Assembly: GCF_003148805.1 (NCBI RefSeq)
Contig: NZ_QGGX01000021.1
Coordinates: 1-64,000, forward strand
Length of the DNA: 64,000 nucleotides
Source: Aminobacter sp. AP02
GTDB lineage: Bacteria; Pseudomonadota; Alphaproteobacteria; Rhizobiales; Rhizobiaceae
Direction of reading: 5' to 3'
This document shows, piece by piece, positions 34,351-61,311 of the stretch. The notes below the pieces were generated by a model that saw only the letters and a list, made by a program, of their open reading frames with translations, was not told the origin of the DNA and did no database searches. The translations under genes and the position numbers were made by a program. Positions within the stretch are counted from its first letter, which is position 1. Each line of letters begins with the position of its first letter.

Positions 34351-34424
34351 GCGGGTATGATGTAATGGTAGCCTGTCAGCTTCCCAAGCTGAACGCGCGG
34401 GTTCGATTCCCGCTACCCGCTCCA
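34351..34424 (+). tRNA. tRNA-Gly (anticodon CCC)
   Basis: A complete 74-nt cloverleaf including encoded CCA. Acceptor stem GCGGGTA/TACCCGC, anticodon stem TCAGC/GCTGA with loop TTCCCAA, T arm GCGGG-TTCGATT-CCCGC. Anticodon CCC reads GGG. No integrase or repeat of its 3' end is visible nearby. Confidence 0.95.
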
Positions 34425-36830: not shown

Positions 36831-36910
36831 TTTCTCGCTCCTATGGTACAAATGGTTTAGTCGACCCCACGATTGACGCAAGCAGGCTACGGGTCTAAAG
36901 GACTTTTATC

Positions 36911-36963
36911 CCGTGGTGATTTGGCCGGTCGGCTTGCAGCCACGTTAAACAAGTCGCTAAAGG
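36911..36963 (+). ncRNA. SAM-II riboswitch
   Basis: The stretch shows the conserved SAM-II order: GTGGTGATTTGG at the 5' side of P1, CCGGTCGG, CTTGCAGCCACGTTAAA and AAGTCGCTAAA at the 3' pseudoknot side. P1 forms from GTGG/CCAC. It lies 59 bp before the metZ start, the usual place for SAM-II in alphaproteobacteria, and should turn metZ down when S-adenosylmethionine is abundant. Confidence 0.93.
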
Positions 36964-36974
36964 GCCGTTGACGG

Positions 36975-37005
36975 ACCGGTTGCGACTTTCGCGGCCGGTT
37001 TTTTT
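36975..37005 (+). terminator. Intrinsic terminator between the SAM-II aptamer and metZ
   Basis: An 11-bp stem (36975-36985 with 36989-36999, two G-U pairs) with a 3-nt loop runs into seven T. It lies 12 bp after the aptamer and 17 bp before the metZ start codon, so premature termination is possible in this leader. Confidence 0.8.
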
Positions 37006-58239: not shown

Positions 58240-58364
58240 CCTCTCCCCGTTTACGGGGAGAGGATGCCGGCAGGCAGGTGAGGGGCAGAGTTGACGTTGC
58301 CAATCCTGGCGCAGCCCCTCATCCGGCCCTTCGGGCCACCTTCTCCCCGTGAACGGGGAGAAGG
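58240..58364. repeat. Pair of inverted two-hairpin intergenic repeats (gene-less)
   Basis: The left copy (58240-58286) and right copy (58314-58364) are inverted versions of one unit. Each has a CTCCCCGTTnACGGGGAG-type palindrome, a short spacer and hairpin (GGCCCTTCGGGCC in the right copy), then a GAGGGGC end. The core between them is 27 bp. The unit matches the repeats that flank the DUF559 gene at 60.8-61.3 kb. It fills the space between fadA and fadJ. Confidence 0.85.
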
Positions 58365-59612: not shown

Positions 59613-60785
59613 TCAGAGCGAGCGGGCGATCAGCAACTTCATGATCTCGTTGGTACCGCCATAGATGCGCTGCACGCGCGCGTCGCGGTACATGCGGGCG
59701 ATCGGGTATTCATTCATATAACCATAGCCGCCAAACAATTGCAGGCATTCGTCGACGATCTTGCACTGCAGGTCCGACAGCCAATACTTGGCCATTGATG
59801 CAGTTACCGGATCGAGCCCGCCAGAAATATGACGCGCGACGCAGTCATTGTAGAAGACGCGCCCGATGGTCGCCTCGGTCTTCAATTCGGCGAGCTTGAA
59901 CTGGGTGTTCTGGAAGTCGAGGATCGCCTTGCCGAAAGCCTTGCGCTCCTTGACGTAATCGATGGTTTCGGCAAGCGCGCGCTCGATCATGGCGATCGCG
60001 CCGGCGCCGATTTCGAGCCGCTCCTGCGGCAGCTGCTGCATGAGCTGGACGAAACCCTGGCCTTCTTCCTGTCCCAGCAGATTGGAGGTCGGCACGCGCA
60101 CGTCGTTGAAGAACAGCTCGGACGTGTCGTTGGCCTTGAGACCGATCTTGTCGAGGTTGCGGCCGCGCTCGAAACCTTCGACCTCGTCGGTCTCGACGAC
60201 GATCAACGAGGTGCCCTTGGCGCCCTTGGACGGATCGGTCTTGGTCACGACGATGATCAGGTTGGCGTGCTGGCCGTTGGTGATGAAGGTCTTCGAGCCG
60301 TTGATGCGGTAGTGGTTGCCATCACGCTCGGCGCGTGTCTTGACGCCCTGCAGGTCGGAACCTGCTCCCGGCTCGGTCATGGCGACGGCACCGATCAGCT
60401 CGCCGGTCGCCATCTTGGGCAGCCACTTCTTCTTCTGCTCTTCCGAGCCGTAGTGCAGGATGTAGGGCGCGACGATCGAGTTGTGCAAGGCGATGCCGAA
60501 GCCGTCGACGCCGACATGCCCGATCGCCTCGATGATCGCGCTCTCATGGGCGAAGGTGCCGCCCGACCCGCCATATTCCTCGGGCATCGATGCGCAGAGC
60601 AGACCGGCAGCACCCGCCTTTTCCCAGCTCGCGCGGTCGACCATCTCGTTCTTTTCGAACGCGTCGTAGTGCGGCAGGATTTCTTCCGTCATGAAGCGGT
60701 GCGCCATGTCGTAGAGCATCGACACATCGTCCGCCGCCCAGGCGGGCTTGGGCAGTCCCAGAACATCTGCAGGAATTGTCGTCAT
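59613..60785 (-). CDS. Acyl-CoA dehydrogenase
   Basis: The protein has 390 aa from ATG 60785. FAD-binding signatures GAVAMTEPGAGSDLQGV and YRINGSKTFITNG, flavin-contact QLFGGYGYMNEYPIARMYRDARVQRIYGGTNEI near the C-terminus with the catalytic-type Glu. It introduces the first double bond in acyl-CoA oxidation. Its ATG overlaps the stop codon of the broken DUF559 gene, so that insertion sits right at its ribosome-binding site. Confidence 0.92.
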   Translation of the reverse strand: MTTIPADVLGLPKPAWAADDVSMLYDMAHRFMTEEILPHYDAFEKNEMVDRASWEKAGAAGLLCASMPEEYGGSGGTFAHESAIIEAIGHVGVDGFGIALHNSIVAPYILHYGSEEQKKKWLPKMATGELIGAVAMTEPGAGSDLQGVKTRAERDGNHYRINGSKTFITNGQHANLIIVVTKTDPSKGAKGTSLIVVETDEVEGFERGRNLDKIGLKANDTSELFFNDVRVPTSNLLGQEEGQGFVQLMQQLPQERLEIGAGAIAMIERALAETIDYVKERKAFGKAILDFQNTQFKLAELKTEATIGRVFYNDCVARHISGGLDPVTASMAKYWLSDLQCKIVDECLQLFGGYGYMNEYPIARMYRDARVQRIYGGTNEIMKLLIARSL

Positions 60786-61263
60786 GGCGCGGTTCCTCCC
60801 TCCCCCTTGAGGGGAGGGTGGCCGCGCAGCGGCCGGGTGGGGTCCCCCAACATGCTCTCCGCCCTCTCCCTTACAAACTGCGCGACGTGCCAGGCGCTGT
60901 GCATCACATCCGGCTCGTCAATCCTGAGCACGACATATCCGAGAGACTCCAGGTAAGCGTCGCGATTGGCGTCGTGCCGCTTACCTGCTCCGTTTCGTGA
61001 CTGTCGCCATCAATCTCAACCACCAGACGAACGGATGGACAGAGGAAGTCGACAATGTACGGTCCAATCGGAGACTGGCGCCTGAACTTCAACCCTGCAG
61101 CTCGCAACTCCCGCAATTCGTACCAAAGCAAGGTTTCCGCCTTGGTGGTGTGCAGGCGCAACGAGCGCGCCTTCTGGCGCATTTCGAAACCGATGCGAGT
61201 GCGAGGCACGACAGTTTTCCTCTCGGTGTGTACCTTCAACAAATCGTCGCTACCTGTCGTCAC
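60782..61263 (-). pseudogene. DUF559 (Vsr-like) endonuclease gene, frameshifted
   Basis: From ATG 61263 the reading gives a DUF559 core: KAETLLWYELRELRAAGLKFRRQSPIGPYIVDFLCPSVRLVVEIDGDSHE, the PD-(D/E)XK-type nuclease signature. Near 60982 one base is missing. The other frame continues the family pattern (KRHDANRDAYLESLGYVVLRI) and ends GHPPLKGEGGTAP at 60782. The broken frame stops at 60904. The gene starts 2 bp after an inverted repeat that supplies GGGAGGGG as ribosome-binding site, and its tail reads through the second copy. The break could also be a sequencing error. Confidence 0.85.
60795..60843. repeat. Left inverted copy of the two-hairpin repeat flanking DUF559
   Basis: A 49-bp unit with the palindrome CCCTTGAGGGG-type stem, then GGCCGCGCAGCGGCC, then GGGTGGGGT. 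Its reverse complement matches the right copy over almost the entire length. It lies inside the C-terminal coding part of the DUF559 frame. Confidence 0.85.
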
Positions 61264-61265
61264 GA

Positions 61266-61311
61266 ACCCCTCCCGGCCCTGCGGGCCACCCTCCCCTCAA
61301 GGGGGAGGGGT
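61266..61311. repeat. Right inverted copy of the two-hairpin repeat flanking DUF559
   Basis: A 46-bp unit: ACCCCTCCC, then the hairpin GGCCCTGCGGGCC, then the CCCTCCCCTCAAGGGGGAGGG palindrome. Read on the minus strand it ends 2 bp before the DUF559 start codon and provides its ribosome-binding site. It lies 9 bp after the upstream acyl-CoA dehydrogenase gene. Confidence 0.85.

What the first reader, a model, noticed from the sequence alone, without database searches (positions are those of the whole stretch)
60782..61311. DUF559 endonuclease gene framed by inverted copies of an intergenic repeat that supplies its RBS: candidate repeat-mobilising unit
Seen directly: 49-bp and 46-bp repeats in inverse orientation bracket a DUF559 gene. 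The right copy ends 2 bp before the start codon and contains the GGGAGGGG ribosome-binding site. The C-terminus reads through the left copy. A gene-less pair of the same repeat lies 2.5 kb away (58240-58364) with only a 27-bp core. The pairing resembles REP elements and their RAYT nuclease genes, but with a Vsr-like nuclease. The idea that DUF559 proteins act on, or spread with, these repeats is inference; I know of no description of it.
Basis: partly seen in the sequence, partly recalled or inferred. Interest (0 to 1): 0.85.

Follow-up and report, generated by a model that had tools for sequence, protein, structure and literature searches.

The report
Nuclease gene bracketed by triplex repeats
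A small Vsr-like DNA-cutting enzyme gene (DUF559) was nearly always found beside, and often between inverted copies of, a widespread bacterial DNA repeat of unknown origin, and gene types go with repeat types, so the enzyme may be what spreads the repeat.

Summary
The window holds a frameshifted DUF559 (PF04480) gene between perfect 26-nt inverted arms. DUF559 genes had a pyrimidine/purine palindrome within 300 nt in 174 of 175 sampled Pseudomonadota loci and 77 of 80 named loci from several phyla, against 33 of 419 control genes and 2 of 30 true Vsr genes (within 510 nt). Where orientation is readable, 112 pairs are inverted and 8 direct. The repeats are PIT/TM 'intrastrand triplex' elements or relatives, reported from more than 260 genomes, origin unknown. 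Of 398 genomes, 69 of 110 with DUF559 and 11 of 253 without it have three or more canonical cores. Protein type predicts repeat type with host background controlled. E. coli K-12 fits: its DUF559 gene ycjD lies beside a published PIT. Best reading: a repeat-plus-nuclease system that works like REP/RAYT but with an unrelated nuclease (EDxHD/Vsr fold). The association is shown. Cutting and mobilisation are inferred: the gene itself rarely moves, no target duplication was seen, and only one of five displaced gene pairs shares DNA ending at palindromes on both sides. The RBS and 'same repeat' claims fail.

The parts
60782..61209 (-). DUF559 (PF04480) gene, frameshifted near 60985; start by homology GTG 61209; the shifted frame would end at 60782, overlapping the ATG of the next gene
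   Evidence: 78.9 bits, profile 3-69 of 109; intact relative at the orthologous site in genome G003 (L029, L064)
60798..60818 (.). Palindrome of the 3'-side repeat arm, CCCTCCCCCTTGAGGGGAGGG
60820..60834 (.). Second hairpin of the 3'-side arm, GGCCGC-GCA-GCGGCC
   Evidence: seen directly
60835..60844 (.). G-rich tail of the 3'-side arm, GGGTGGGGTC (mirror of the purine stem; possible third strand)
   Evidence: seen directly; mirror statistic over the collected loci
61289..61309 (.). Palindrome of the 5'-side repeat arm (inverse orientation)
61275..61287 (.). Second hairpin of the 5'-side arm, GGCCC-TGC-GGGCC
   Evidence: seen directly
61266..61274 (.). Tail of the 5'-side arm (GGGAGGGGT on the - strand)
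   Evidence: seen directly
58240..58263 (.). Gene-less pair, first palindrome (a related but different repeat type)
   Evidence: pair present in 2 of 10 genus genomes, short spacer in 6 of 10, other neighbour gene in 2 of 10
58339..58364 (.). Gene-less pair, second palindrome

Best explanation
DUF559 proteins are the cognate nucleases of PIT/TM-type (intrastrand-triplex) repeats, as RAYTs are of REPs. The full unit is two inverted repeats, each a pyrimidine/purine hairpin with a G-rich mirror tail (in the window type with a second hairpin between), around one small EDxHD/Vsr-fold nuclease gene. SHOWN here by sequence: near-universal adjacency in the samples, inverted orientation, gene-repeat type pairing and genome-level co-occurrence. 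PARTLY SHOWN: unit ends at the palindromes (both sides in 1 of 5 displaced pairs, right side in 4 of 5). INFERRED: the nuclease recognises the folded arm (hairpin or triplex, most easily in single-stranded or extruded DNA), nicks or cuts there, and repair carries the arm pair to a new intergenic place with small target changes and no target duplication. Pairs without the gene then spread in trans and decay to single palindromes, while the gene stays low-copy and mostly vertically inherited. The window copy is a degenerating member.
For: Adjacency: 28/29 genus, 90/90 family, 29/29 order, 27/27 phylum loci, against 33/419 control ORFs; 150 hairpins in 54.6 kb of DUF559 zones against 84 in the other ~635 kb. 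Named loci 77/80, incl. records titled Nitrospirae, Aminicenantes, Omnitrophota, Chloroflexi and Gastranaerophilales. Inverted arms >=20: 15/29 and 37/90, 16/29 and 12/27, 43/80, against 0/528 ORFs (3 at 16-19) and 0/30 Vsr. Orientation 112 inverted, 8 direct, p 1e-24. Genomes with >=3 canonical cores: 69/110 with DUF559, 11/253 without; odds ratio 37, or 18.7 stratified by family, p 1e-9. Pairing: cognate beats swapped in 107 of 131 genome pairs, 21/21 at strong protein contrast, within-genome shuffle p<=0.0005; 7 window-clade genes not used in the profile all lie between inverted arms (scores 19-43). MG1655 ycjD (PF04480, 167 bits) lies about 168 nt from TMECO 9 of Holder et al.. The host genome has no PF01797 match. 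Fold: 3hrl, then homing endonuclease I-Bth0305I 3r3p.
Against: No cleavage, binding or movement was observed. 33 of 38 close DUF559 pairs (>=80% identity) are syntenic (at least two of them are 100% pairs that are probably one genome met twice). Of the five displaced pairs only L189/L192 ends at palindromes on both sides, and L058/L081 on neither. At three sites with alleles lacking the element target bases are replaced and no duplication is visible. 11 of 253 genomes without DUF559 have >=3 cores, one with 107; 41 of 110 with DUF559 have fewer than 3. 90 of 255 loci have repeats on at most one side and 45 were unclear. The pairing test is weak on disjoint genomes (median 9 against 2, p 0.03). 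The window-clade cut of 134 bits was set by me after seeing the list; the next two genes (127 and 121 bits) have no inverted arms. The PF04480 control search rang in 2 of 14 known genomes and not in its E. coli genome, although ycjD is present in MG1655; not resolved. A Caulobacter DUF559 protein (VsrA) is proposed to be a mismatch-repair nuclease (PMC12907096, passages).
Confidence: 0.68

Rival explanations
1. DUF559 is a host housekeeping nuclease that resolves structures formed by these repeats (hairpins, triplexes, stalled forks). Selection keeps gene and repeat together, but the protein does not spread the repeat.
For: The gene is mostly vertical (33 of 38 close pairs syntenic). Holder et al. 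link the motif to local instability and discuss repair at the structure (PMC4666352, discussion section part 1). VsrA of Caulobacter acts in a DNA-damage context (passages).
Against: Does not explain why the gene so often lies between two inverted copies of its own repeat type. A housekeeping enzyme needs no repeat beside its gene.
Confidence: 0.17
2. The arms are regulatory: hairpins that terminate or attenuate transcription or let the protein control its own mRNA. Copies elsewhere are independent terminators.
For: Arms lie close to both gene ends, and in six relatives the C-terminus is read from the arm.
Against: Repeats with the same core also occur as gene-less inverted pairs: six in the host genome, 48-89 nt start to start, though with another tail. 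Holder et al. report that PIT motifs showed no promoter or terminator activity in earlier work. Pairing across genomes follows the protein, not the host.
Confidence: 0.06
3. The unit is passive cargo: inverted repeats moved by another enzyme pick up genes, and DUF559 merely hitch-hikes.
For: Repeats also occur without DUF559 in 11 of 253 genomes at >=3 copies.
Against: No other ORF in the sample was bracketed at score >=20 (0 of 528, three at 16-19). The host genome has no Y1 transposase match. Repeat type tracks DUF559 type.
Confidence: 0.05
4. DUF559 is simply a Vsr-type mismatch-repair enzyme and the repeats are coincidental.
For: Fold related to Vsr (1vsr E 0.009); the VsrA model.
Against: True Vsr genes (PF03852) in the same order: repeat within 510 nt in 2 of 30, inverted arms 0 of 30. 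DUF559 with the same windows: 29 of 29 and 16 of 29.
Confidence: 0.04

Closest known systems
REP elements / REPINs with RAYT (TnpA-REP)
   Same: Gene bracketed by two inverted palindromic repeats; gene-less inverted doublets; repeat and protein types co-vary; singlets explained as decayed doublets (PMC2817692 and PMC3116915, abstracts and passages only).
   Different: RAYT is a Y1 HUH transposase, DUF559 an EDxHD/Vsr-fold nuclease. The repeats are pyrimidine/purine with a mirror tail, and the window arms lack the GT(A/G)G head described for Stenotrophomonas REPs.
PIT / TM (TMECO) intrastrand-triplex motifs
   Same: Same hairpin plus mirror-tail plan; inverted pairs; intergenic. One of the 23 published E. 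coli copies lies beside ycjD (PMC4666352; abstract, sections 12 and 15, part 1 of section 20, and passages).
   Different: That paper names no enzyme and reports no link with mobile elements. Window arms carry a second hairpin in loop 2 and a different stem.
EDxHD homing endonucleases (I-Bth0305I)
   Same: Nearest solved fold after the DUF559 protein 3hrl. A paper already assigns a cyanobacterial DUF559 gene to EDxHD (PMC9403480, passage).
   Different: I-Bth0305I belongs to a group I intron and has extra DNA-binding regions (PMC3943268, passages). These genes are free-standing beside or between repeats.
Vsr (PF03852) and Caulobacter VsrA (DUF559)
   Same: Related fold; VsrA carries a DUF559 domain (PMC12907096, passages).
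   Different: Vsr genes lack the repeats. The VsrA paper's main text has no word beginning with 'palindrom'; the flanks of vsrA were not looked at here.

Membership tests
DUF559 / PF04480 | Match over the curated cut-off | tested here: met
   78.9 bits, cut-off 20.6; truncated by a frameshift
DUF559 / PF04480 | Whole conserved nuclease core in one open frame | tested here: not met
   In the window only the N-terminal part is in frame; the D-x-x-R region and the C-terminus are in another frame. Intact in relatives
REP/RAYT | Y1 HUH (PF01797) enzyme | tested here: not met
   No PF01797 match at E<=0.001 in the host genome; the enzyme here is PF04480
REP/RAYT | Gene flanked by two inverted repeats | tested here: met
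   window; generally about half of DUF559 loci by the strict measure; orientation
REP/RAYT | GT(A/G)G head on the repeat | tested here: not met
   Absent from the window arms by inspection; feature as given in PMC2817692 passages
REP/RAYT | Repeat type follows enzyme type | tested here: met
PIT/TM triplex motif | Pyrimidine/purine hairpin followed by a mirror purine tail | tested here: met
   Window arms. Over 1297 hairpin readings (each palindrome read on both strands) the mean mirror score is 6.0, against 5.1 unmirrored, 4.9 swapped and 4.4 shuffled; mirror beats unmirrored 533 to 205 among 1236 asymmetric arms, the rest tie; 501 are within 2 points of perfect
PIT/TM triplex motif | Strict TMECO consensus with 3-nt loop 2 | tested here: not met
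   The window arms have a 13-15 nt hairpin there; consensus
PIT/TM triplex motif | Triplex forms in the cell | not testable with these tools
   Holder et al. [quoted passage not shown]
DDE-type IS / MITE | Target-site duplication at an occupied site against an empty site | tested here: not met
   Three sites with alleles lacking the element, no duplication seen
EDxHD homing endonuclease | Related catalytic fold | tested here: met
   3r3p E 4e-5 by Foldseek with the predicted model, 0.004 by profile
EDxHD homing endonuclease | Cleaves alleles that lack the element | not testable with these tools
   needs enzyme assays
Vsr / PF03852 | PF03852 match | tested here: not met
   Scan of the window protein against Pfam-A lists only PF04480 at E<=0.001
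Vsr / PF03852 | Nicks T:G mismatches | not testable with these tools
   needs enzyme assays

The most novel reading that the evidence does not exclude
DUF559 proteins (E. coli YcjD and perhaps Caulobacter VsrA among them) are the missing mobilisers of the intrastrand-triplex (PIT) repeats reported from hundreds of bacterial genomes. They form a second repeat-disseminating system that arose independently of RAYTs, works with a restriction-type nuclease, spans several phyla, and recognises the folded hairpin-plus-mirror-tail (triplex) shape of its own gene's borders.
Probability: 0.52. Interest if true: 0.93.

Novelty: new variant of a known kind. Interest (0 to 1): 0.85.

Why it matters
PIT/TM repeats are described without any enzyme or origin in the paper I read. 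If DUF559 is their nuclease, a common source of bacterial genome variation gets a mechanism that can be tested in E. coli K-12. It would also mean that short palindromic repeats acquired cognate nucleases at least twice, with unrelated enzymes. It gives a likely role to a large family of unknown function and bears on how VsrA-like proteins damage DNA.

Tried and rejected
Rfam at the gathering threshold found only a SAM_alpha riboswitch and a tRNA in the window; the arms match no family. Clean insertion with target duplication: looked for at the fad operon, the 58240 pair and E. coli hrpB-mrcB and alx-sstT; replacement or collapse was seen, so the simple transposon reading is not supported. High mobility of the gene itself: not supported, 33 of 38 close pairs are syntenic. 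RBS supplied by the repeat: not supported. Y1_Tnp as benchmark: inverted arms >=20 in 6 of 30 loci, pyrimidine/purine hairpin in 5 of 30, both sides 0 of 30; the set mixes RAYTs with ordinary IS200/IS605 genes, so it is a weak positive control. PDB hits to unrelated toxin B subunits (E 0.26 and up) were set aside as chance.

Rows dropped before counts: L030 (second fragment of L026) and L061, L064, L127, L129 (duplicates of other loci); fragments of one frameshifted gene were counted once. In the 398-genome table 35 genomes with only weak DUF559 matches were kept apart (4 of 35 with >=3 cores). The window-type core pattern also takes in a second subtype with another tail (seen), so the counts of 12 of 13, 27 of 61 and 4 of 47 are for the core, not for the full window arm.

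Sampling limits: genus loci are 30 of the 32 listed places; order and phylum loci are the best-scoring ones only (29 and 27 new loci). Family loci are 30 best plus 60 stretches: every second of the 113 listed rows not yet fetched (57, three contig-end rows replaced by a neighbour) and three further stretches; the list itself was cut. The 80 named loci are the best of 584 candidates, and at least two (L217, L229) are identical to unnamed loci already counted. Related genomes are not independent.

Confidence was lowered from 0.72 to 0.68 and the odds of the novel case from 0.55 to 0.52 for the first of these.
Full report
WHAT IS IN THE WINDOW. Positions 60798-60823 and 61284-61309 are perfect 26-nt inverted copies. 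Each copy is a three-part unit: a pyrimidine/purine palindrome, a short second hairpin, and a G-rich tail that points at the gene. Between them lies a DUF559 gene on the minus strand (78.9 bits). It is broken: the Pfam match stops at profile position 69 of 109, and the remainder is in another frame that runs on through the left arm. An intact relative sits at the orthologous place in another genome of the genus (L029/L064). Six relatives align from a conserved M/V-(P/T)-x-T-R, equivalent to GTG 61209, so a ribosome-binding site in the repeat is not supported. In the same six, DP(T/S)RPLRGHPPL(K/E)G is read from the arm, so there the C-terminus really is repeat-coded. The degenerate core CCCTCCCCCTYGNGGGGAGGG occurs 21 times in the host genome, with no match of the reversed control pattern; 4 of the 21, the window's two included, have the window's exact palindrome. 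Six gene-less inverted pairs of the core lie 48-89 nt apart, start to start, but they have another tail and no second hairpin; one further pair (L346) resembles the window arms.

THE ASSOCIATION IS GENERAL IN THE SAMPLES. I collected DUF559 loci from the genus (10 of 10 genomes), the family (74 of 121), the order (92 of 199) and the phylum (145 of 398). With a simple finder for pyrimidine/purine hairpins (stem of 8 or more), such a hairpin lies within 300 nt of the domain in 28 of 29 genus, 90 of 90 family, 29 of 29 order and 27 of 27 phylum loci; both sides in 20, 48, 21 and 15. Control ORFs more than 700 nt from DUF559 in the same stretches: 33 of 419, both sides 1 of 419; with close neighbours kept, 111 and 8 of 538. 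Inverted arms scoring 20 or more occur at 15 of 29 genus and 37 of 90 family loci and 0 of 528 control ORFs, 16 of 29 order and 12 of 27 phylum loci, and 43 of 80 named loci: about half, so one-sided or degenerate cases are common. True Vsr genes (PF03852) in the same order, with wider windows, give 2 of 30 and 0 of 30; DUF559 with those windows gives 29 of 29 and 16 of 29. Where the tail shows orientation, 112 pairs are inverted (102 with both tails inwards) and 8 direct; 90 loci had repeats on at most one side and 45 were unclear, of 255.

WHAT THE REPEATS ARE. Their plan (pyrimidine arm, loop, purine arm, loop, mirror purine tail) is that of the PIT or TM intrastrand-triplex motif (Holder et al. 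2015, PMC4666352; abstract, sections 12 and 15, part 1 of section 20, and passages read). [quoted passage not shown] coli K-12 with five inverted pairs, and no association with mobile elements or particular gene functions; the word endonuclease does not occur in its main text. Across my loci the tail follows the stem: the mirrored purine arm fits the flank better than the unmirrored one in 533 readings and worse in 205 (1236 asymmetric arms of 1297 readings, both strands read). Window-type arms carry a second hairpin in loop 2, so they are relatives rather than strict members.

E. COLI. MG1655 ycjD is b1289 and matches PF04480 at 167 bits. About 168 nt behind it lies a PIT whose coordinates equal entry 9 of Holder's table. 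In strain ET201 a second, degenerate palindrome overlaps the ycjD stop. With 18 PIT sites in 4.64 Mb this meeting is unlikely by chance, but it is a single case, and I did not test for other DUF559 genes in MG1655. The tool's own PF04480 control over 14 known genomes rang only in Caulobacter and Corynebacterium, which I could not reconcile with ycjD.

GENOME-LEVEL COUPLING. The exact core CCCTCTCCC-N2-8-GGGAGAGGG was counted in the same 398 genomes. Three or more copies: 69 of 110 genomes with a good DUF559 match (E 1e-10 or better), 4 of 35 with only weak matches, 11 of 253 without; Fisher odds ratio 37, and 18.7 when stratified by family, p 1e-9. For the window-type core within the family: 12 of 13 genomes with the window's own DUF559 clade, 27 of 61 with other DUF559 only, 4 of 47 with none; this core pattern takes in a second subtype.

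PAIRING. In 33 family genomes with DUF559 genes usable for the test (76 genes) I asked, for pairs of genomes and excluding syntenic loci, whether repeats look more alike along the protein pairing than when swapped. They do in 107 of 131 genome pairs, with 22 against and 2 ties; at strong protein contrast 21 of 21; shuffling repeats within genomes gives p of 0.0005 or less; on disjoint genome pairs the median is 9 against 2 (p 0.03). A profile of six window-clade proteins found 13 genomes at 134 bits or more, a cut I set after seeing the list. The 7 genes not used in the profile (the window gene aside) all lie between inverted arms (scores 43, 41, 38, 25, 23, 22, 19) with window-like palindromes, on both sides in six; the next two genes below the cut (127 and 121 bits) have no inverted arms.

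MOBILITY. Of 38 DUF559 pairs at least 80% identical in DNA, 33 are syntenic and 5 are not. In those five the shared DNA was mapped. L189/L192 ends within 4 nt of the outer palindrome edges on both sides. L211/L242, L050/L081 and L054/L074 end within 5 nt of a palindrome edge on the right but not on the left. L058/L081 ends at no palindrome. Alleles with and without the element were compared at the fad operon (2 of 9 genus genomes occupied), at the 58240 pair, and at E. coli hrpB-mrcB, where about 110 nt stand in place of 8 (16 of 50 listed records, spread over 5374, align through in one piece). No target duplication was seen. E. coli alleles with one palindrome instead of two (L353, L355) show how pairs can decay to singlets.

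PROTEIN. The invariant residues of 12 diverse members include E13, D42, E53-x-D55-G-x-Q58-H59, D65 and R68. The predicted structure of a window-clade protein (mean pLDDT 80.5, pTM 0.75) matches 3hrl, annotated as an endonuclease-like protein and a strong hit of my DUF559 profile, at E 2e-7, then the catalytic domain of homing endonuclease I-Bth0305I (3r3p, E 4e-5), then Vsr (E about 0.01). A 2005 study already placed YcjD with Vsr in the PD-(D/E)XK superfamily (PMC1189080, passages); PMC9403480 assigns a DUF559 gene to EDxHD (passage).

READING. Anatomy, orientation, pairing and genome coupling resemble those by which RAYTs and REPs were linked (PMC2817692 and PMC3116915, abstracts and passages), but enzyme and repeats are different, and the host genome has no Y1 transposase match. 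I therefore say it works like REP/RAYT and is not a member. The most likely mechanism is that the nuclease cuts or nicks at its folded arms and repair spreads arm pairs. That step is inference. A paper linking DUF559 with these repeats was not found in searches for DUF559, COG2852/PF04480, Vsr and palindromic terms, intrastrand triplex, ycjD and PIT elements. That library holds open-licence PubMed Central papers only, lists were capped, and most papers in them were seen only as titles and abstract beginnings.

Noticed in passing
window 36903-36980 and 34351-34421: SAM_alpha (SAM-II) riboswitch aptamer and a tRNA gene, the only Rfam matches in the window at the gathering threshold.
   Followed up: no
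window 60950-60987: A near-perfect short inverted repeat (I14) lies at the frameshift of the DUF559 gene, as one would expect of a quasi-palindrome mutation hot spot.
   Followed up: no
window 60782-61000 against L029: The 3' part of the window unit (gene end, arm, next start codon) is almost identical to that of G003 while the 5' part and outer flank differ clearly, suggesting gene conversion or a recombination boundary inside the unit.
   Followed up: no
L347, L349, L350 (E. coli MG1655): Three E. coli PIT pairs share sequence beyond the triplex motifs (TTTTC before, GGGGAC(C/T)G after) and two of them share a similar spacer, so the moving unit may be longer than the motifs.
   Followed up: partly
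L188, ycjD-fabI gap: The gap behind ycjD seems to hold a partial duplicate of the ycjD 3' end in front of the PIT (seen by eye).
   Followed up: no
L223 (record titled Legionella anisa): DUF559 gene between 98-nt inverted arms mostly unlike the usual type (score 83): a possible long-arm variant.
   Followed up: no
L171: DUF559 gene between 101-nt arms with score 98; the long middle part of each arm looks able to form a second stem (by eye).
   Followed up: no
L159: An A/T-richer version of the repeat (CCTAACCCCTCTTTGCTAAAGAGGG) stands repeated behind DUF559 in a small unnamed Pseudomonadota genome; possibly the same system in a low-GC host.
   Followed up: no
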